Origin: Oscillatoriophycideae cyanobacterium NC_groundwater_1537_Pr4_S-0.65um_50_18
GTDB taxonomy: Bacteria > Cyanobacteriota > Cyanobacteriia > Elainellales > Elainellaceae
DNA length: 64,000 bases
NCBI GenBank assembly: GCA_016208305.1
Contig: JACQYI010000014.1
Span: forward strand, 1 to 64,000
Direction: 5' to 3'
Shown here one piece after another: positions 32,477 through 52,294 of this stretch. The notes beneath the pieces are model-generated. The model saw nothing but the letters and a program-made list of their open reading frames with translations, did not search any database and was not told where the DNA came from. Made by a program: the position numbers and the translations under genes. The number at the start of each line of letters is the position of its first letter. The first letter of the stretch is position 1.

Positions 32477-35185
32477 TCACATCATTAACTTGAAAAACAA
32501 AACCGTAAACCCAACCATGAGGCAGAGGTGGGGCAGATTGCTCAATATAGGGCGTTGGGTGATGCGCAACAGCGGATAGACGCTGAAAATTAGAGCCGAG
32601 AGGATTGTCACTCCTTGCAGGAACGTCGCCACATCCGTACTCCAGGTCAGCGTTGGTAAGCCCGCGCCGCTAAAGCCCAAGGTTCGTGCCAAAACAGGTA
32701 GAATTTGCCCCGCTTCTGTGACGGCAGCCGGGACATAGTGTGTCAGGTTAGCAGCTAGGGTAAAGGGCAAATAGGCGTAGAGGACGGTGAGATAGGAGGG
32801 CTGTTTGGGGTCTAGCAGACGGGCGATCGCATGGGTGCCATAGGTCAATCCCAAGGGAAGGCTGAGGAGGGCAAGGGCGATCGGGGTACTGGTGAGCAGA
32901 TGATTGGCATCCAGGGGAAGATCGGGGTAGCCTAGCCATGCTAAAAGCCGTTGGGCATGGTGCATAAACACTCCCCCAAACAGCAGCAAGAGCAGCGCGC
33001 CTTCTGCCCAAAAGCCTCGGTGATTGTCCAGCAAGTCGGACGTGGGAAACCGCAGGTTTAACTGGGCTGAGCGGTTGGGACAGGCTTTGAGGCAGGTCAT
33101 GCACAGCATGCAGTCTCGGTTGTCTTGCAATTGAGCCGGATGGGAATAGAGCGGACAGCCACCCGTCGCCTGTCCTTCGTTGGGCAGCGCATCGGCAAAG
33201 GTGACGGGGGTGGCGCTACTGCCTTTGTAGCAGCCAAACGTATGGCACTGGCTGCCGCACACCTGTTGGGTCGATCGCAACTCCACCATAGCCAGCTTGG
33301 CAAACATCCCGTTCATGCCGCCAATTGGGCAGAGATAGCGACACCAGAGCCTGCGCTCATAAATCAGGCTAAAGATCACCGCTCCGGCTGTAATCGTTAG
33401 CAGCAGCCAGGCCGATAAATAGGCATGATGGGGTAAATCCCAGAGTTTTTCCCACAGGTAAATGGCCACAAAGCCACCAAACAAAATCCAGGCTCCCCAG
33501 CGATTGAGCCATTGGGTATTCCAGGTGAGTTGCTGACGCGGAAACAGCCGCAGGGAGAACCGACGAATCCATTCTGCGGTGATCATGAAGGGGCAAACGG
33601 CGCACCAAAGCCGGCCGACAAAGACAAAGAGAAACAGATAACCCGGCCACCACCAGGCCCAGAACAGATTGAGGGTTACACTGCTGTCTCGCGTTTGCGG
33701 GCCAATGAATCCGGCGATCGTCACAGGCACAAAGAAGGCCATCATCGCGATCCAGAGACCCTCTGGATACCAGCGGCTCAGCAATACTTGCCGCAGCCAG
33801 GGCACATGGGTAAGCAAATCCACGCGGAAGGCATTCTTGGCCGACTGTACCGACCACAGGGCTTGTTCTGAAATCACTGCCTGCCCCGGTGGGGTCATGA
33901 TCACGGCTCGATGCAAAATTTCTGCCAGTTCGGTCAGGTTGCCGGGATAGTCGTAGCTCAGCAAGCGACGCAAATCGGACTGATCTAAAGTCAGCAGCGG
34001 ACGATTTTGAGCCTGACAAAACTGAGCTAAAAAGGAACGGGCAAATGCTGGAATATCTGCCTTGCGCTGGGGCAGGCTAAACAGCTTGATGGTGATAGTG
34101 TCTATTGTGGGCAGATCGAGTTTGTCTGGAGCCGCAAGGATTAAGCGCACCCAGGACTGAGCGGGCTGAGGATGCTCAGTGGTCAGAGTGTTGACACTAC
34201 TCAGCCCGTGATTGGGCAATATCTCACCTGTTTTGCAGTAGTCGATCAGGCGGGCGCGATCGCCCCCACTCAACACCTGGACATTATTGAGCAGTAGGGT
34301 TCCCCGCTCCAGCAGTTCGAGAATGCTTGCTTGTCCACTGACTCTACCAAATAGGCCATCGGTATTGAGCCTGCCTTCGCTGGATCGGGGTAGCTTGGCA
34401 CAATCGAGTTCAGCAAAAGGTTGGTCTGCGAGTTTAGAACGGGCATGGATCAACCCTGCCAGAAAGGTTTTTCCCGTTCCGGGTTGAGCTTGAAGCAACA
34501 CAGGGTTCAAACTCGCTGCGGCTTGGTCAATTTGCTCTACCAGCTTTTGGCTGGCTTTGCTGTCGCCCAGGATCATCTCTCCAGTTGGAACCGCTTGAAT
34601 ATAAGACTGTAAGCCTTGAATGCGGCGTTGTTCTTGCGCAATACGAACGCTGAAGGCATTTAAGTCTTGCGCTAACAGGGCGTTAAACAGATGTTCAAGC
34701 TCGACATACTGCTGCATGAGCTGATGAAACTGAGCCTCAGGCAAAAACCAGATTTCGCTGGCCGTCAGGGCGATCGCCTGTGTCTGGTGCCTGCCGTTTT
34801 CCAGGTTTGCCATCAGTGACACATAGCCAAATAGCTCTCCAGCTTTGCGATAGCGAATCAGAGATTTGCCAATTGGGGAGAGCCGAGAAATTTCGACGGT
34901 GCCGCACTTCAGCAGGTATAGCCCAATGTTTTTTTGCTTTTCCTGGTAGATCTGCGTTTGGGGTTCAACACGAAAGCAATATAAGGACTGGGCGATCGCT
35001 TGCAATGCCTCTGCTGGTAATTGTCCCAAAAGCCGATGAGAACTTAACCAATGCCGACAATCTTCAACAGCTTTGTCATCAGCCATAACAACACTGGCCA
35101 TATCTGCGATCAAGGGCAAGGGCTGATCGGTTGCCAGTGTAGAGTCGGTTTGAACAGATGCTGTAGCTGTCGTTCTGGGATGCAT
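32477..35185 (-). CDS. CRP-like + AAA+ (sigma-54-activator-like) + NapH/CcoG-type Fe-S membrane fusion
   Basis: A 902-residue fusion. Residues 50-185 are a cyclic-nucleotide-binding/CRP-like sensor (KNIGLYLLKCGTVEIS, GELFGYVSLM). Residues 205-430 are an AAA+ module of the sigma-54-activator type (Walker A PGTGKT 235-240), but the GAFTGA loop is absent (GLFGRVSGQA instead). From about 475 onward come membrane helices with NapH/NosR/CcoG-like Cys motifs: C528xxCP, C615xxxCP, C643/C647/C652 and a ferredoxin-like C692xxCxxCxxxCP. About four more helices follow. It could couple a redox or electron-transfer signal to a regulatory ATPase. Divergent from ado, it is the best candidate local oxygen/redox regulator; DNA binding is not evident. 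Confidence 0.8.
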   Translation of the reverse strand: MHPRTTATASVQTDSTLATDQPLPLIADMASVVMADDKAVEDCRHWLSSHRLLGQLPAEALQAIAQSLYCFRVEPQTQIYQEKQKNIGLYLLKCGTVEISRLSPIGKSLIRYRKAGELFGYVSLMANLENGRHQTQAIALTASEIWFLPEAQFHQLMQQYVELEHLFNALLAQDLNAFSVRIAQEQRRIQGLQSYIQAVPTGEMILGDSKASQKLVEQIDQAAASLNPVLLQAQPGTGKTFLAGLIHARSKLADQPFAELDCAKLPRSSEGRLNTDGLFGRVSGQASILELLERGTLLLNNVQVLSGGDRARLIDYCKTGEILPNHGLSSVNTLTTEHPQPAQSWVRLILAAPDKLDLPTIDTITIKLFSLPQRKADIPAFARSFLAQFCQAQNRPLLTLDQSDLRRLLSYDYPGNLTELAEILHRAVIMTPPGQAVISEQALWSVQSAKNAFRVDLLTHVPWLRQVLLSRWYPEGLWIAMMAFFVPVTIAGFIGPQTRDSSVTLNLFWAWWWPGYLFLFVFVGRLWCAVCPFMITAEWIRRFSLRLFPRQQLTWNTQWLNRWGAWILFGGFVAIYLWEKLWDLPHHAYLSAWLLLTITAGAVIFSLIYERRLWCRYLCPIGGMNGMFAKLAMVELRSTQQVCGSQCHTFGCYKGSSATPVTFADALPNEGQATGGCPLYSHPAQLQDNRDCMLCMTCLKACPNRSAQLNLRFPTSDLLDNHRGFWAEGALLLLLFGGVFMHHAQRLLAWLGYPDLPLDANHLLTSTPIALALLSLPLGLTYGTHAIARLLDPKQPSYLTVLYAYLPFTLAANLTHYVPAAVTEAGQILPVLARTLGFSGAGLPTLTWSTDVATFLQGVTILSALIFSVYPLLRITQRPILSNLPHLCLMVGFTVLFFKLMM

Positions 35186-35463: not shown

Positions 35464-35498
35464 TTAGTAAAATTTTAATATGACGAGGAGCATTGCAG

Positions 35499-36194
35499 AT
35501 GTCTCAATCGCAGACTGGTTTTACTCTTGATTTTCACAGTGACACCTACCGCGATAGCTTTAGTCGCATCAATGCCATTGTGATTGTGGGGGAGCAAGAG
35601 GCACATGATAATTTCATAGGTTTGACTAAACTTCTACCCGAACATACAGCAGCCTTAACTCGTCTCGGTAAGATGGAGTTTCGTCATCGCAAAAGCTTTG
35701 AAGCCTGCGGACGTAATCTCGCTGTCATCCCCGACTTAAGGTTTGCCGAACAGTTTTTTGCTGAGTTGCATCAAGCGTTTCAATCGGCGATCGCCCATCA
35801 TCAAACTGCCGCTTGTTTGCTCATACAGGCACTGATTATTGAATGTTTTGCGATCGCCGCTTACAACACCTATATTCCCGTTGCGGATGACTTTGCCCGT
35901 CGCGTAACAGAGTCAGTCGTTGCCGATGAATATGAGCATCTCAACTTCGGTGAAATTTGGCTAAAGGCAAATTTTGCAGCTGTCAAAGAGGAATTAGAAG
36001 CCACCAATGGCCAGGTTTTACCGATTATTTGGCGGATGTTGAATCAAGTTGAATTGGATGCCAAGGGCATTGGCATGAATAAGCAATCTCTGATTGAAGA
36101 GTTTATCGTTCGCTATGGCGAAGCACTTAGCCAGATTGGGTTTAGCACCCGTGAGATACTCCGCTTGACCAGCCAAGGCTTGCAGTCAGCGTAA
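35499..36194 (+). CDS. ado: aldehyde-deformylating oxygenase (ADO)
   Basis: A 231-residue protein, the normal length for cyanobacterial ADO, a ferritin-like di-iron enzyme that turns fatty aldehydes into alkanes plus formate using O2 and reductant. All six metal ligands fall at the canonical positions: Glu32 (GEQEA), Glu60 and His63 (KMEFRHRK), Glu115 ([11 protein letters not shown]), Glu144 and His147 (DEYEHLN). GAGGAG lies 8 bases before ATG 35499. The usual partner, acyl-ACP reductase (aar), is not adjacent; instead a rogue psbA follows. This points to an ADO paralogue under separate, probably low-oxygen, control, either for alkane formation or for another aldehyde- or O2-linked role. Confidence 0.93.
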
Positions 36195-36260: not shown

Positions 36261-36458
36261 CAAACCAAAGAAGCTTGTTTCTAAAGGTTTCTTTGTTTGC
36301 TAGATCCTTGTAACCAAGGGTATTGTCGCCTTATTTCTGGTGGCTTTAAGGTTGGCAAATTGTCTGGATCGATCGCTGGGTTTGTAAGCATCATCAACCT
36401 TCATCACTTGGCCTTACAGATCCAACCCGTTCTCCTCATTTTTGGGAGGTTTCATCTT

Positions 36459-37580
36459 ATGGCTATTGCGATTAAAAATCGACCATCACCGGACATCAAA
36501 GCCTGGGATTGGTTCTGTGAGAAGATTACCAGTACCAACAATCGCTTTTATATCGGTTGGTTTGGGGTACTGATGATTCCGACTTTACTAGTTGCCGTAA
36601 CCGTCTTTATCCTGGCATTAATTGCGGCTCCACCCGTTGACATGGAAGGCATTCGTGAGCCAGTGTTCGGTTCTCTCATGGATGGCAACAATCTAATTAC
36701 GGCTGCTGTAATTCCTACTTCTGCGGCGATCGGACTGCACCTTTATCCCATCTGGGATGCTGCATCCATTGACGAATGGCTCTACAACGGAGGGCCTTAC
36801 CAATTGATTGTGCTGCACTTTTTGATTGGCATTTTTGCATATATGGGTCGCCAGTGGGAATTGAGCTACCGTCTGGGTATGCGCCCCTGGCTTGCGGTAG
36901 CGTTTTCTGCTCCCGTTACTGCCGCAACTGCTGTACTTTTGGTTTATCCGATCGGTCAGGGTAGCTTTTCAGAAGGTTTACCCTTGGGCATTGCTGGCAC
37001 CTTCCACTTTATGTTTGCGTTCCAGGCTGACCACAATATCTTGATGCATCCCTTACATATGCTGGGTGTCATTGGTGTGTTGGGTGGCGCACTGTTGAGC
37101 GCTACACATGGTTCTCTGGTTACAGCAAGTCTCATCCGAGAAACCTCTGACCTAGAATCAACCAATGTCGGATATCACTTTGGGCAGCAGGAAGCAACCT
37201 ATAACCTGATAGCAAGTCACTCCGGTTATTTAGGGCGGTTGCTGGTGCCAGGGCTGGCATTTCGCAACAGCCGTACTGTGCATTTTTTGCTGGTTGCTCT
37301 GCCTACCGTTGGCATTTGGCTGGCGGCTTTGGGGATTGGTGTAATGGCATTTAACCTCAATGGGTTTAACTTCAACCAATCTATTTTGGACAGCCAGGGA
37401 AAAGTAGTTCCGACGAATGCCGATATCCTCAATCGAGCTACGTTAGGTATTCAAGTGATGCATGCTCCCAATACCCATCATTTTCCAGAGGTATTAGCGA
37501 GTGGTAATGCAGTACCCGTAAATGTCTTGGCTTCAGCGTTCAGCCAAGCTGTACCAGAGGCAGTTACTGTACCGAGCTGA
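36459..37580 (+). CDS. psbA: rogue (sentinel-type) photosystem II D1 protein
   Basis: A 373-residue divergent D1. In standard D1 numbering it keeps Tyr161, His190, His198, His215, His272, His332 and His337, so core pigments, YZ and the iron site look intact. It alters the water-oxidation site: Asp61 to Glu, Asp170 to Glu, Glu189 to Asp, Glu333 to Ala, Asp342 to Val. The QB pocket is changed too (Phe255 to Leu, Ser264 to Ala, one extra residue after His252). The C-terminal tail differs from the usual processed tail. This matches rogue/sentinel D1, thought to make PSII centres that cannot oxidise water. The segment YMGRQWEL is ordinary and no far-red (FaRLiP) genes are near, arguing against chlorophyll f synthase. 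Start ATG 36459 has GGGAGG upstream; the upstream open frame is not used. Confidence 0.88.
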
Positions 37581-38165: not shown

Positions 38166-39161
38166 TTATAGAAGCGCATTAAAAATATAGCCGATGCTGA
38201 TAATCCCTAGAGTCATTAACCCAACAAATACGGCTAAGAGTTGAGGTTGCAGCACTTTCTTGAGAATCACCATTTCAGGCAGCGATAAAGCCGTTACAGA
38301 CATTGTGAACGCCAAAACCGTACCCATTGGCACACCTTTATTGACTAAAGCTTCCGTAATTGGCATAACACCCGCAATATTGGCATAGAGTGGCACACCT
38401 AAAATGACTGCGAGCGGCACGGCTAAAGGATTACTTGCGCTTGCATATTGGGCAATAAAAGCTGTCGGCACATAGCCATGAATGCCCGCTCCGATCGCAA
38501 CGCCAATCACGACATAGAGCCATACCGATCGCACAATTTCGCTCGCTTGAAACTGCCCTTGCTCAAATCTTTTTCGCCAAGTCAGCACTACTGGTTCTAG
38601 AGTTTCTGCATCCTCTGGAAGCCTGACTTGACGCGCTTTTTGCAGTTCCCAGACGAAAGGTTCCACCCATCTTTCTACTTTGAGTAGCCCGATGATGTAT
38701 CCAGAAACGATCGCTAAACCCACGCCAAAGCCAATGTAGATCAGCGTTACCTTCAATCCAAACAAACCCCACAAAAGAATCACAGCTACCTCATTAACCA
38801 TCGGCGCTGCCATCAGATAGGAGAAAGTCACTCCTAACGGGACACCTGCTTCTAAAAAACCAATGAACAAAGGCACCGCAGAGCAAGAGCAGAAGGGTGT
38901 GACGATGCCGACCATAGCCGCCAAGATATTGCCCGCAAATGTTCGCCTCCCCTCTAGCAAAGTGCGCACGCGCTCTGGTTCTAAAAAGCTTTGAAAAGTG
39001 CCAATCAGAAAGCTAATGACTAGCAGTAAAGTTAAGATTTTGGGTATATCGTAAAGAAAAAAATGTAGACTCGATCCGAAGGGCGATGTAATCGACAAGC
39101 TCAAGAGCTGGGTAACGATCTGGATCGCCAACCAATCAAATGGATAAAACGGATCGAACAT
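38166..39161 (-). CDS. DUF318/ArsP-type permease
   Basis: A 331-residue membrane protein with about eight helices. The hallmark TPFCSCSAVPLF lies near residues 89-100 and a second half repeats the fold (MPITEALVNKGVPMGTVLAF), as in the UPF0718/ArsP permease family (SO_0444/YraQ relatives). ArsP exports organoarsenicals; other members are linked to Cu or redox stress, so the substrate is open. GGAGG is 8 bases before ATG 39161. It starts 12 bases after the thioredoxin-like gene, a frequent partner, and is last in the minus-strand train that begins at 49.6 kb. Confidence 0.85.
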   Translation of the reverse strand: MFDPFYPFDWLAIQIVTQLLSLSITSPFGSSLHFFLYDIPKILTLLLVISFLIGTFQSFLEPERVRTLLEGRRTFAGNILAAMVGIVTPFCSCSAVPLFIGFLEAGVPLGVTFSYLMAAPMVNEVAVILLWGLFGLKVTLIYIGFGVGLAIVSGYIIGLLKVERWVEPFVWELQKARQVRLPEDAETLEPVVLTWRKRFEQGQFQASEIVRSVWLYVVIGVAIGAGIHGYVPTAFIAQYASASNPLAVPLAVILGVPLYANIAGVMPITEALVNKGVPMGTVLAFTMSVTALSLPEMVILKKVLQPQLLAVFVGLMTLGIISIGYIFNALL

Positions 39162-39173
39162 CAATTTACCTCC

Positions 39174-39416
39174 TTAGTAATGCAAGAGAGCCTGAATTTG
39201 TTCGGGACTGATGACTTGACCTTTGCTGACAACTTTGCCATTGATGGCCATCGCGGGAGTAGACATCACACCTCTTTTAGCGATTTCGATAGGGTCATTA
39301 ATATGCAAGACTTCAGCAGTTAAATTAAGGTTTGCTACGGCTTGTTTAACGTTGGCTTCTAGCTGTTGACACTTTTTACAGCCTGTCCCTAAAATTTCGA
39401 TCTTGATTGCGTTCAT
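39174..39416 (-). CDS. small thioredoxin-like redox-active disulfide protein
   Basis: An 80-residue thioredoxin-fold protein with GTGCKKCQQLEANV (CxxC active site near residue 12) and the cis-Pro motif STPAMAINGKVVSKG. It belongs to the TM0996 / redox-active disulfide protein 2 family, which commonly accompanies DUF318 permeases. It probably keeps a thiol in the permease or its cargo reduced. No signal peptide, so cytoplasmic. Confidence 0.88.
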   Translation of the reverse strand: MNAIKIEILGTGCKKCQQLEANVKQAVANLNLTAEVLHINDPIEIAKRGVMSTPAMAINGKVVSKGQVISPEQIQALLHY

Positions 39417-39481
39417 AACACAGTTACTTTTTGTGCGCTGTCATGTAATTTAGTCAACTCAATAGCGATCGCCCAACCTTT

Positions 39482-40159
39482 TTAGCACCAAGATTGTTCA
39501 TCGGGAGAGTTGTGTAGCAGCTCTCGGATGTTAGCTTCGATTACCCGGTAGCCGACATTGCCATTGAGTCGTTGCCGTCCTTCATTAAAAATTAAGGTTG
39601 GGCTGACGGTAACACTATGCTCTTTGACCAACTCAAAATCTTTGGAGAGCAGAGCATAAGCCTCGCCATTATCAATTTGCTCCTGGATGGCGGCGATCGG
39701 TAACCCTAGCTCCTCAGCGATTGCAAATTGTACCTTGCGGTCAGAAACATTTGCCAGTTTAGTAAAAAACGCTTCCCGAAATGCCCAGATTGCTTTTTCA
39801 AAAACATGATCTGATTTTTGAACAATGCCTTTAATTTCTAGCAATTGAATGGCGTGAAGAAACAAATGACAAGAGGTAGACGAAGGTGGAATTACATCAG
39901 TCCAAATATCCGGATGAACGCTAATGTGATCGAATTTTTTCACAACTTCGTGAACGTGGTTGCTATAGCCTTTGAAACCCCCCTGATCTCGCCAGCGCGT
40001 TTCCAATTTTTCGCGGGCATTGCCAAACACAGAGACAAAATGAGGGGCGATCGCAATCTTGTCTTGAAAGGTAGTTTGCAGCTCATCTATGCGAATTTGA
40101 GCGATATAGGCCCATACACAGAGAACGTCAGAAAAGTAGAAAATGCGAATAGGTGACAT
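39482..40159 (-). CDS. DsbA-family (FrnE-like) protein lacking one active-site Cys
   Basis: A 225-residue DsbA/FrnE-like protein: IRIFYFSDVLCVWAYIAQ at the N-terminus, a helical insertion, VTVSPTLIFNEG (cis-Pro loop) and a C-terminal Cys at the very end (EQSWC). FrnE-like enzymes usually carry CPWC or CxxC here; this one has CVWA, with only the first Cys. It therefore cannot make the normal disulfide, unless with the terminal Cys, and may be an isomerase, a glutathione-transferase-like or a persulfide-handling variant. No signal peptide. Confidence 0.8.
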   Translation of the reverse strand: MSPIRIFYFSDVLCVWAYIAQIRIDELQTTFQDKIAIAPHFVSVFGNAREKLETRWRDQGGFKGYSNHVHEVVKKFDHISVHPDIWTDVIPPSSTSCHLFLHAIQLLEIKGIVQKSDHVFEKAIWAFREAFFTKLANVSDRKVQFAIAEELGLPIAAIQEQIDNGEAYALLSKDFELVKEHSVTVSPTLIFNEGRQRLNGNVGYRVIEANIRELLHNSPDEQSWC

Positions 40160-45603: not shown

Positions 45604-45846
45604 TCGTGCTCTTGTAAAAGCTTGATGAAGGGAGAGGGAGAGGGTGGGGGTGGGTAGGTGAGAGGAAGGGAGAGGGGGAAGGAGGAAGAGGGGGAAGGAG
45701 GAAGAGGGGGTGGGTGAGGGGGTGAATGAGTAAGGCTATCTTGCCGTCCCATCATCCCGTCATCACTTCATCCCATCATCCCGTCATCACTTCATCCCGT
45801 CATTTCACCATCCCTTCATCCCGCCCTCCCGTCCTCCCACGCTGCA
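45604..45846. repeat. low-complexity purine-rich / CATCCCGTCATC repeat
   Basis: GGGAGAGGGAGAGGGTGGG and GGGGGAAGGAGGAAGAG strings turn into CCCATCATCCCGTCATCAC strings. The repeat runs into the rhodanese gene and encodes its last about 14 residues (RGRTGGRDEGMVK). Confidence 0.8.
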
Positions 45847-46159
45847 CAGCATATCCTGCACCTTGCCATGCCAGTAAACCACCTTGCAGGTTATAGACTT
45901 GACAGTAGCCTTGAGTCACTAACCATTGCGCCGCGATCGCGCTGCGATGGCCTGATAGACAAGTAATCGCGATCGGCTGATCTTTGGGAATGTCTTTTAG
46001 AATGCGGTTACAGCTGAGTCGTTGCGCGCCTGGAATATGTCCCATCCAGTATTCCAACCAACCTCTAATATCAATAACCAAAAGTTGATTTCGGCGTGAT
46101 TTTAGCTGTGCAGGAACGAGTGAAACTGGATTCTGAGTTTGTTTTTGGGTTGATTTCAT
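45800..46159 (-). CDS. single-domain rhodanese (sulfurtransferase)
   Basis: A 119-residue rhodanese domain. LVIDIRGWLEYWMGHIPGAQRL is the substrate-shaping N-terminal motif and ITCLSGHRSA the catalytic loop with the persulfide-carrying Cys. It likely transfers sulfane sulfur produced by the SQR-like enzyme upstream. The tail beyond AVQRG is repeat-derived and probably dispensable. A DUF2892 protein, which in YgaP-type proteins is fused to rhodanese, is the first gene of the same train. Confidence 0.9.
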   Translation of the reverse strand: MKSTQKQTQNPVSLVPAQLKSRRNQLLVIDIRGWLEYWMGHIPGAQRLSCNRILKDIPKDQPIAITCLSGHRSAIAAQWLVTQGYCQVYNLQGGLLAWQGAGYAVQRGRTGGRDEGMVK

Positions 46160-47930: not shown

Positions 47931-49274
47931 TCATACCTTTACCTGGATGCGCTCTGCACGGGGAGTAACGGGTTCTACCAGCGGCAGCCCGATCGCCCGA
48001 AAACCCCAACGCTCAAACCAGGGAATCGTCCAGCCTAGGCGCATCTTCGTCATAAAATAAGTCTCAAAGATTGCCTTTATCCATGACACCCAAATACCGT
48101 GATAGGTGAGCGCACGACGGCGATTTCCCGACTGATCTGGCAGCAATGGATCGGCTAAAAATAGCGCTCCAGTGTTGCCAAAATCTGCGAAGCAAATGGC
48201 TTGGAGGGTGGGTTGATAATGATTACCAGACGTGACCCCTAACTCTAGAGCAATATTATGGGCAACTGCCAACGCCATTTCTTCGCTCATTAATCCCACC
48301 TTAGGAGCACCCGTGGGAATAGGGGTTTGCTCTACGGCTTTGAGTTGAGTGATCACGCCCACGGCATAAATCGACTCAAAATCAGGATGACGATAGGTGG
48401 GCAATACGGGGATAAACCCCTTGGCATCTGTTAGCCCTGGCGCTTCGCGCAGGAAACGTGGCCCCCTAAAAGGCGGCAAGACCATTGTGTACTTTGATGG
48501 AATCACGCGCCCATCTGCCAGATGAACCGCATCCGGTTCAAAATGCGAAATGGCTGTATTTTCCATCAGCTCAATTTCCCGATCGGCCATGAATTTGCGC
48601 ATCAGCCAGCGGGAGTTATTCATGCCGCTGATGCCTAGATGTCCAGCATAGGGTTCTGAGGTAATAAAGGTAATTGGGACTTGCGATCGCTTCGACGTTG
48701 CGGAGCGACTTCTCAATCCCTTCTGCTGCAAAACATGATGGAGCAAGAAGGCAAACTCATAGGCGGGGCCAAAACAACTAGCTCCCGGTGCCGCACCCAC
48801 TACAATCGGCCCTGGATCGGCTAAGAATTCCTCCCATGCTTTACCTGCCAGTACCGCATGATGCGGATTACATACCGATTGGGTATAGCCTCCCTCCGGC
48901 CCCAACCCTGGAATAGCATCTAGTGCCAGTTCTGGCCCCGTAGCAATGACAGCATAATCGTAGTCCAGCACTCGCGTCACTGCACCATTAGCGCCAGGAT
49001 CGTTGATCGTAAGCTGACGTAACTTCGGATCAATCGCCGTAACAGCCGCGTGAATAAACTCAATGCCATGTTGAGGCACAGTCTTGTTTAAATCTAATTG
49101 AATGTGACTGAGAGACTTTAACCCCAACCCCACCCAAGGCAACGAAGGCACGAACGTAAATTTCAATTGATTTGAAATAAGCGTGATCTGATGTTCACGC
49201 GGCAAGGCGTGCCTCAATTCATAAGCAGCAGGCAATCCTCCTAGTCCAGCCCCAATGACAACAACACGAGCCAT
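47931..49274 (-). CDS. sqr: sulfide:quinone oxidoreductase-like flavoprotein
   Basis: A 447-residue FAD disulfide reductase with VVIGAGLGGLPAAYEL at the N-terminus, YAVIATGPE, and GVITQLKAVEQTPIPTGAPKVG near the second FAD site. Three Cys match the SQR catalytic set in spacing: Cys135 (SVCNPHH), Cys167 (GASCFGPAYEF) and Cys361 (AICFADFG). The C-terminus carries an amphipathic/hydrophobic segment (IKAIFETYFMTKMRLGW) suited to membrane attachment. SQR oxidises sulfide to sulfane sulfur and reduces plastoquinone. Rhodanese, DUF2892 and an ArsR sensor in the same train support this. A related flavocytochrome-c sulfide dehydrogenase or NDH-2-like role is less likely. AGGAG is 8 bases before the ATG. 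Confidence 0.8.
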   Translation of the reverse strand: MARVVVIGAGLGGLPAAYELRHALPREHQITLISNQLKFTFVPSLPWVGLGLKSLSHIQLDLNKTVPQHGIEFIHAAVTAIDPKLRQLTINDPGANGAVTRVLDYDYAVIATGPELALDAIPGLGPEGGYTQSVCNPHHAVLAGKAWEEFLADPGPIVVGAAPGASCFGPAYEFAFLLHHVLQQKGLRSRSATSKRSQVPITFITSEPYAGHLGISGMNNSRWLMRKFMADREIELMENTAISHFEPDAVHLADGRVIPSKYTMVLPPFRGPRFLREAPGLTDAKGFIPVLPTYRHPDFESIYAVGVITQLKAVEQTPIPTGAPKVGLMSEEMALAVAHNIALELGVTSGNHYQPTLQAICFADFGNTGALFLADPLLPDQSGNRRRALTYHGIWVSWIKAIFETYFMTKMRLGWTIPWFERWGFRAIGLPLVEPVTPRAERIQVKV

Positions 49275-52211: not shown

Positions 52212-52294
52212 AATAATATAGTCAAGTTTTACTTGCTTGATATTTACCCTATCTCATATCACTTCATGCATTTCGTGCATTGAAAATTGGAATT

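What the first reader, a model, noticed from the sequence alone, without database searches (positions are those of the whole stretch)
32477..35185. CRP-like + AAA+ + NapH-type Fe-S membrane fusion with no GAFTGA
The protein joins a cNMP-type sensor and a sigma-54-activator-like AAA+ module to a polyferredoxin-type membrane half with at least eleven Cys in four clusters. Cyanobacteria lack sigma-54, and the GAFTGA loop is missing, so the AAA+ part must do something else. Divergent from ado, it may report quinone or oxygen status by electron flow through its clusters.
Basis: partly seen in the sequence, partly recalled or inferred. Interest (0 to 1): 0.75.

Follow-up and report, generated by a model that had tools for sequence, protein, structure and literature searches.

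The report
Iron-sulfur membrane protein of sulfide islands
A cyanobacterial membrane protein that joins two worn-out signalling domains to an intact iron-sulfur electron-transfer domain turns out to be a recurrent member of a mobile sulfide and low-oxygen gene island, often next to a cysteine-making gene, and I found no published test of its function.

Summary
ORF 32477-35185(-), 902 aa, is a CRP-type cNMP-fold domain, a sigma-54-activator-type AAA+ module and a NapH-like Fe-S membrane half with 12 (not 11) conserved Cys. GAFTGA is absent, and the genome has no sigma-54. Two details change the reading. The catalytic Walker B Glu is missing in all 67 aligned homologues, and the cNMP-phosphate cassette and any DNA-binding domain are also missing, whereas the Fe-S half is the best-conserved part. 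So this is not a usual transcription activator; it looks like a pseudo-AAA+ control module on an electron-transfer protein.

The architecture is widespread in Cyanobacteria, in two clades. Clade B (~40% identical) is nearly housekeeping. Clade A (this gene; 37 of 291 genomes, two plasmids) is patchy and probably mobile. Clade A's commonest partner is not ado but cysK, directly downstream in 31 of 57 loci. That cysK type occurs only in clade A genomes (24/24), and 33/37 clade A genomes carry an SQR relative against 51/254 others. Rogue D1 and a second ADO are real but occasional neighbours.

Best explanation: a redox/quinol-coupled membrane component, probably regulatory, of a sulfide/low-O2 island. 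The mechanism is inferred, not shown.

The parts
32477..35185 (-). 902-aa fusion protein, clade A member: CNBD / pseudo-AAA+ / NapH-like Fe-S membrane protein
   Evidence: ORF; Pfam; family; tree
34616..35062 (-). cNMP-binding-fold domain (res. 42-190) without the phosphate-binding Glu/Arg; no HTH follows
   Evidence: Pfam; position 121 is Y/H/C in all 53 clade A rows
34196..34579 (-). AAA+ core (res. 203-330), sigma-54-activator type; L1/GAFTGA loop deleted
   Evidence: PDB sequence and fold matches to sigma-54 activators
34466..34480 (-). Walker A GTGKT (res. 236-240), Thr kept in 52 of 53 clade A rows; T240 is D in all clade B rows
34283..34300 (-). degenerate Walker B TLLLNN (res. 296-301); catalytic Glu replaced by Asn/His/Gln in all 67 rows
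33854..34069 (-). AAA+ lid (res. 373-444), sensor-II Arg mostly lost
   Evidence: Pfam
33281..33763 (-). NapH-like membrane core (res. 475-635) with CX2CP (528-532) and CX3CP (615-620)
   Evidence: Fer4_5; TIGR02163 42 bits, below cut-off; all Cys invariant
33077..33259 (-). soluble Fe-S loop (res. 643-703): CX3CX4C...CP plus a ferredoxin-type CX2CX2CX3CP
   Evidence: 8 Cys invariant; most conserved part
32480..33010 (-). C-terminal helix bundle (res. 726-902) with His742 invariant in both clades and His816 nearly so
   Evidence: bundle shared with a stand-alone Deinococcus protein
35493..36194 (+). second aldehyde deformylating oxygenase (ADO), divergent neighbour
   Evidence: PF11266; the other copy in the genome is 58% identical
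36297..37580 (+). rogue D1 (psbA) without a complete Mn site; first ~53 aa probably not translated
47931..49274 (-). SQR-like flavoprotein of the same island
   Evidence: Pyr_redox_2; best NCBIfam SQR_III_seleno, 75 bits, below cut-off
45800..46159 (-). rhodanese-domain protein of the same island
38166..40159 (-). ArsP-family permease, thioredoxin-3 and DsbA-like genes, recurrent in other clade A islands

Best explanation
The protein is a membrane-anchored, iron-sulfur redox component of a horizontally moving cyanobacterial sulfide/low-oxygen adaptation island. Most likely the NapH-like half exchanges electrons with the plastoquinone pool through its Fe-S clusters. The cytosolic half is a catalytically dead AAA+ unit that may bind ATP but not hydrolyse it, joined to a non-canonical CRP-fold domain. 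It would sense or gate that electron flow and pass the state on by protein contact, for example to the cysteine synthase encoded beside it, when SQR feeds sulfide electrons into the quinone pool. Shown here: domain anatomy, loss of the ATPase and sigma-54 residues, conservation of the Fe-S half, cysK and SQR linkage, patchy distribution and plasmid location. Inferred: bound clusters, quinone as electron partner, pseudo-ATPase as signal relay, sulfide as the cue, control of CysK.
For: Catalytic Glu absent in 67/67, Walker A Thr kept in 52/53 clade A rows, phosphate-cassette Glu absent in all 53. No HTH or FIS domain; no sigma-54. 12 invariant Cys, and the Fe-S core and loop are 57-62% identical between clades against 27-34% for the N-terminal domains. 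cysK directly downstream on the same strand in 31/57 clade A loci, 0/35 clade B. That cysK type occurs in 24 genomes, all with clade A, p 4e-26. SQR relatives in 33/37 clade A genomes against 51/254, p 2e-16, and within one family and one genus still p 6e-4 and 7e-3. Neighbours: rhodanese, ETHE1-like, TauE, ArsR, cydAB, Rieske, rogue D1. Plasmid copies with cysK and psbA. Tree: clade A monophyletic (SH-aLRT 100), cysK present on the deep branches and near the window gene's two nearest relatives. Published precedent: sqr lies close to rogue/microaerobic psbA in 15 genomes (PMC5061849).
Against: No expression, spectroscopy or mutant data. The window's own copy has no adjacent cysK, and the closest cysK in its genome is only 55% identical and lies elsewhere. 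19 of 66 clade A loci show none of the island genes within 10 kb; some of these are short contigs, but a Nostocales group with long contigs lacks them too. The quinone link rests on analogy with NapH/NosR. The near-universal clade B shows that the architecture itself is not sulfide-specific.
Confidence: 0.5

Rival explanations
1. It is an electron-transfer enzyme first (quinol- or thiol-linked reductase feeding a cytosolic or lumenal acceptor in sulfur metabolism), and the N-terminal domains only oligomerise it or switch it on.
For: The Fe-S half is the best-conserved part. A stand-alone homologue without the N-terminal domains exists in Deinococcus ficus, keeping the Cys motifs and the C-terminal bundle. 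NapH and NosR are electron-transfer proteins (PMC5928378).
Against: No partner oxidoreductase is constant next to it; cysK needs no electrons. Both clades keep the full CNBD and AAA+ domains, which argues for a needed control function.
Confidence: 0.28
2. It is a true redox-dependent gene regulator of its neighbours (ado, rogue psbA, sqr), acting at the membrane through a partner transcription factor.
For: Divergent position next to ADO in 4 loci and near ADO in a fifth; co-occurrence with that ADO type; ArsR genes nearby in several islands.
Against: No DNA-binding domain, no GAFTGA, no ATPase Glu, no sigma-54. ADO is next to few clade A genes. No shared upstream operator was found.
Confidence: 0.15
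3. It is a decaying paralogue of the housekeeping clade B protein carried along by the island without a function of its own.
For: Degenerate ATPase and cNMP motifs; fragments and split copies exist (L174; L047, L048).
Against: Full-length copies are 60-90% identical across families with every Cys kept. The same ATPase loss is conserved in the near-universal clade B. The cysK linkage is retained on deep branches.
Confidence: 0.05

Closest known systems
Clade B paralogue of the same architecture in most cyanobacteria (from memory probably includes Synechocystis slr0593, listed as 'cAMP binding membrane protein' in PMC3516471; not verified by sequence here)
   Same: Same domain order, same 12 Cys, same missing GAFTGA and catalytic Glu
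   Different: About 40% identical; Walker A Thr replaced by Asp; nearly universal; no cysK next to it
NapH / NosR / RdhC polyferredoxin-type membrane proteins
   Same: Membrane core with CX3CP-type motifs and a ferredoxin-type motif (PMC5928378)
   Different: First motif is CX2CP, extra C-terminal helix bundle, N-terminal CNBD and AAA+, scores far below the NapH model cut-off
Sigma-54 activators (NifA, NtrC, PspF, DmpR)
   Same: AAA+ fold and lid
   Different: No GAFTGA, no catalytic Glu, no DNA-binding domain, no sigma-54 in the genome
sqr / psbA sulfide and low-oxygen gene neighbourhoods of cyanobacteria (PMC5061849)
   Same: SQR, ArsR and rogue or microaerobic psbA in proximity
   Different: That paper's text has no mention of cysteine synthase, and in the passages read it does not name this gene

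Membership tests
Sigma-54-dependent activator (bEBP) | GAFTGA loop | tested here: not met
   Deleted in all 52 aligned
Sigma-54-dependent activator (bEBP) | Walker B with catalytic Glu (ATP hydrolysis) | tested here: not met
   Asn/His/Gln in 67/67
Sigma-54-dependent activator (bEBP) | DNA-binding (FIS/HTH) domain | tested here: not met
   No such Pfam match at E up to 0.1
Sigma-54-dependent activator (bEBP) | Sigma-54 present in the genome | tested here: not met
   PF04552 absent in the window's assembly, four control genomes positive
Sigma-54-dependent activator (bEBP) | AAA+ fold | tested here: met
   Pfam, PDB profile and Foldseek matches
CRP/FNR regulator | cNMP-binding-fold sensor domain | tested here: met
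   PF00027 E 3e-14
CRP/FNR regulator | HTH following the sensor domain | tested here: not met
   No HTH match; AAA+ follows
cNMP-binding protein | Phosphate-binding cassette Glu and Arg | tested here: not met
   Glu position is Y/H/C in 53/53 clade A and L/F in clade B; Arg position mostly Q
NapH/MauN family | Curated model score (TIGR02163, NF007013) | tested here: not met
   42 bits against a cut-off of 213; 31 against 234
NapH-like polyferredoxin membrane proteins (broad) | Fer4_5 domains with two CX3CP motifs | tested here: inconclusive
   Two Fer4_5 hits; second motif is CX3CP, first is CX2CP
NapH-like polyferredoxin membrane proteins (broad) | Bound 4Fe-4S clusters and quinol oxidation | not testable with these tools
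   Needs purified protein
Cyanobacterial sulfide/low-O2 island gene | Linkage with SQR, cysK, rogue or microaerobic psbA | tested here: met

The most novel reading that the evidence does not exclude
A new class of membrane redox signal transducer: electrons from the plastoquinone pool reduce an NapH-type Fe-S chain, and an ATP-binding but non-hydrolysing AAA+ ring with a CRP-fold cap relays that state by protein contact. The near-universal clade B would serve normal growth, and the mobile clade A, with its own cysteine synthase, would serve sulfidic or micro-oxic life.
Probability: 0.3. Interest if true: 0.85.

Novelty: new variant of a known kind. Interest (0 to 1): 0.62.

Why it matters
A protein architecture present in most cyanobacteria has no described function in the papers searched, and a 2026 review of cyanobacterial redox signalling has no hits for AAA, sulfide or SQR. 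The mobile paralogue marks a portable sulfide/low-oxygen island that also carries SQR relatives and sometimes rogue D1. It therefore offers a concrete handle on how cyanobacteria switch between oxygenic and sulfide-tolerant or anoxygenic photosynthesis, a question that current genomic work leaves open (PMC5061849, PMC8651085).

Tried and rejected
Sigma-54 activation: rejected. cAMP sensing: unlikely, cassette residues absent. ADO as the main partner: rejected as general, kept as occasional. A shared promoter operator (FNR, CRP or NtcA-type boxes, gapped palindromes) upstream of clade A genes: none stood out. Fold of the membrane half: C-half model pLDDT 80, pTM 0.82, but Foldseek gave no significant PDB match, and the VIA-align Z values of 5.5 or less are at the level of common helical arrangements; a missing match says nothing about novelty. 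The Fe-S loop is modelled with pLDDT under 50, so cluster geometry cannot be read. The whole 96.7-kb contig as a plasmid: a partial scan of the far end showed enzymes, two-component proteins and a T2SSE ATPase, no replication or transfer gene, so undecided. Literature searches for the architecture by name found nothing on its function. Own-genome FASTA was not available.

Full report
OBSERVATION. The ORF at 32477-35185 on the minus strand encodes 902 aa. Pfam finds cNMP_binding, Sigma54_activat, AAA_lid_14 and two Fer4_5 stretches, all above their curated cut-offs. The genome has no sigma-54 by PF04552, while the same search finds it in four control genomes.

ANATOMY. I aligned 52 family members and later 67, all but the window with named hosts. 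Three things stand out. First, the AAA+ module is a pseudo-ATPase. The loop that carries GAFTGA is deleted, the catalytic Walker B glutamate is Asn, His or Gln in all 67 rows, and the sensor-II Arg is mostly gone. Walker A GTGKT is nevertheless kept in nearly all clade A rows (Thr in 52 of 53), so ATP binding without hydrolysis is plausible. Second, the CRP-like domain lacks the residues of the phosphate-binding cassette, and neither an HTH nor a FIS domain follows. Third, the Fe-S membrane half is the conserved core: 12 Cys invariant, and 57-62% identity between the two clades in the core and loop, against 27-34% in the N-terminal domains. A stand-alone homologue of just this half, with the same Cys motifs, sits on a Deinococcus ficus plasmid (27% identity over 451 columns). 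My reading is a polyferredoxin membrane protein that acquired a regulatory front end, rather than a transcription activator that acquired clusters.

STRUCTURE. The full model has pLDDT 79 and pTM 0.51; its AAA+ part matches DmpR, NtrC1 and PspF. The C-half alone has pLDDT 80 and pTM 0.82, but the cluster-bearing loop is not resolved in the model, and no PDB fold match rises above chance level.

FAMILY. In 291 cyanobacterial genomes 220 have a match. Full-length members form two clades, both recovered with SH-aLRT 100. Clade B, about 40% identical to the window protein, is nearly universal, and the window's own genome has one. Clade A, at 55-90% identity, is in 37 genomes, scattered over families. 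In pairs of genomes that carry both, clade A is often 10-20 points more similar than clade B across families (39 of 64 inter-family pairs by more than 5 points, none the other way; some rows, notably G007, are partial). Two clade A copies lie on plasmids, one typed as conjugative. The two other genomes of the window's genus that were searched show only clade B-level matches (G077 and G279). This fits horizontal transfer, although a slower rate of clade A is not excluded.

NEIGHBOURHOOD. Clustering of neighbouring ORFs without a prior list gave a cysteine synthase as the top partner of clade A, typically 7-150 bp downstream on the same strand. In an enlarged, named set it is there in 31 of 57 loci with enough downstream sequence, and in none of 35 clade B loci. 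Genome-wide, that cysK type occurs in 24 genomes, every one of which has clade A. Relatives of the window's SQR-like protein occur in 33 of 37 clade A genomes and 51 of 254 others; the association holds inside one family and one genus. These counts are not corrected for a full species tree. Other recurrent neighbours are rhodanese, ETHE1-like metallo-beta-lactamase, TauE, ArsR, Rieske, Tll0287-like, cydAB and, in a minority, D1. Several of these names (ETHE1-like, TauE, cydAB) were read from sequence by me and not run through a family library. The Pseudanabaena plasmid shows the fuller set: this gene, cysK, rhodanese, Tll0287-like, Rieske, psbA, a NifX-like gene, an SQR-like gene and ArsR. Hosts include Phormidium pseudopriestleyi FRX01, the Antarctic species studied for photosynthesis in the presence of sulfide (PMC8002359, listed), and Synechococcus SynAce01.

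THE WINDOW'S OWN ISLAND. Around the gene lie ADO, a rogue D1 with a lost Mn site, an ArsP-family permease, thioredoxin-3, DsbA, an RND pump, HlyD, rhodanese, DUF3122, DUF4405, the SQR-like protein, and a second D1 with intact ligands at 52280. Its two nearest relatives in the tree have cysK, rhodanese and SQR or ETHE1-like neighbours. The cysK link is therefore probably ancestral to clade A and was lost here.

THE ADO LINK. ADO lies directly divergent in four clade A loci and nearby in a fifth. Six of the seven genomes with an ADO at least 70% identical to this one have clade A, p 2e-5.

MECHANISM. Shown: anatomy, loss of the catalytic and sigma-54 features, conservation of the Cys, linkage. 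Inferred: the NapH-like core exchanges electrons with plastoquinone, by analogy with NapH and NosR (PMC5928378); the pseudo-AAA+ and CRP-fold part gates or relays; the cue is sulfide-driven reduction of the quinone pool by SQR or falling O2; the target may be the neighbouring CysK. I give this 0.5, with a plain electron-transfer enzyme as main rival (0.28).

LITERATURE. sqr near rogue or microaerobic psbA has been reported (PMC5061849), and rogue D1 (PsbA4) has been deleted in Cyanothece with small effects (PMC9640542). A 2026 review of cyanobacterial redox signalling has no hits for AAA, sulfide or SQR (PMC13421787). From memory, Synechocystis slr0593 is probably the clade B member; it appears as 'cAMP binding membrane protein' with lower transcript under iron deprivation (PMC3516471), which would fit an Fe-S protein. 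I could not check its sequence.

VERDICT. Confirmed observation, interpretation partly supported. A new variant built of known modules, embedded in a probably mobile sulfide/low-oxygen island.

Noticed in passing
window 36297-37580: The rogue D1 ORF carries about 53 extra N-terminal codons from a TTG; the real start is probably the Met at about 36456 (MAIAIKNRP).
   Followed up: partly
window 35493-36194 and G000:C56:38421-39104: The genome has two ADO genes, 58% identical; ADO needs O2, yet this copy sits in a low-O2 island, which is odd.
   Followed up: partly
window 38166-39164: ArsP-family permease, best NCBIfam match efflux SaoE (below cut-off), recurrent in clade A islands together with a thioredoxin-3 gene.
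   Followed up: partly
L174 8109-8423: Pseudanabaena galeata plasmid pPg_02 carries a 69%-identical fragment of the AAA+ part only, a decayed copy next to an intact one on pPg_03.
   Followed up: no
L095 and L105: Nostoc carneum NIES-2107 has two clade A copies, one with cysK and one in a Nostocales group without island genes.
   Followed up: partly
L070 7643-11005: A clade B homologue in an open frame of 1121 aa, longer than the usual 850.
   Followed up: no
L173 7039-9320: Deinococcus ficus plasmid: stand-alone Fe-S membrane half directly downstream of a 308-aa protein without any Pfam match.
   Followed up: partly
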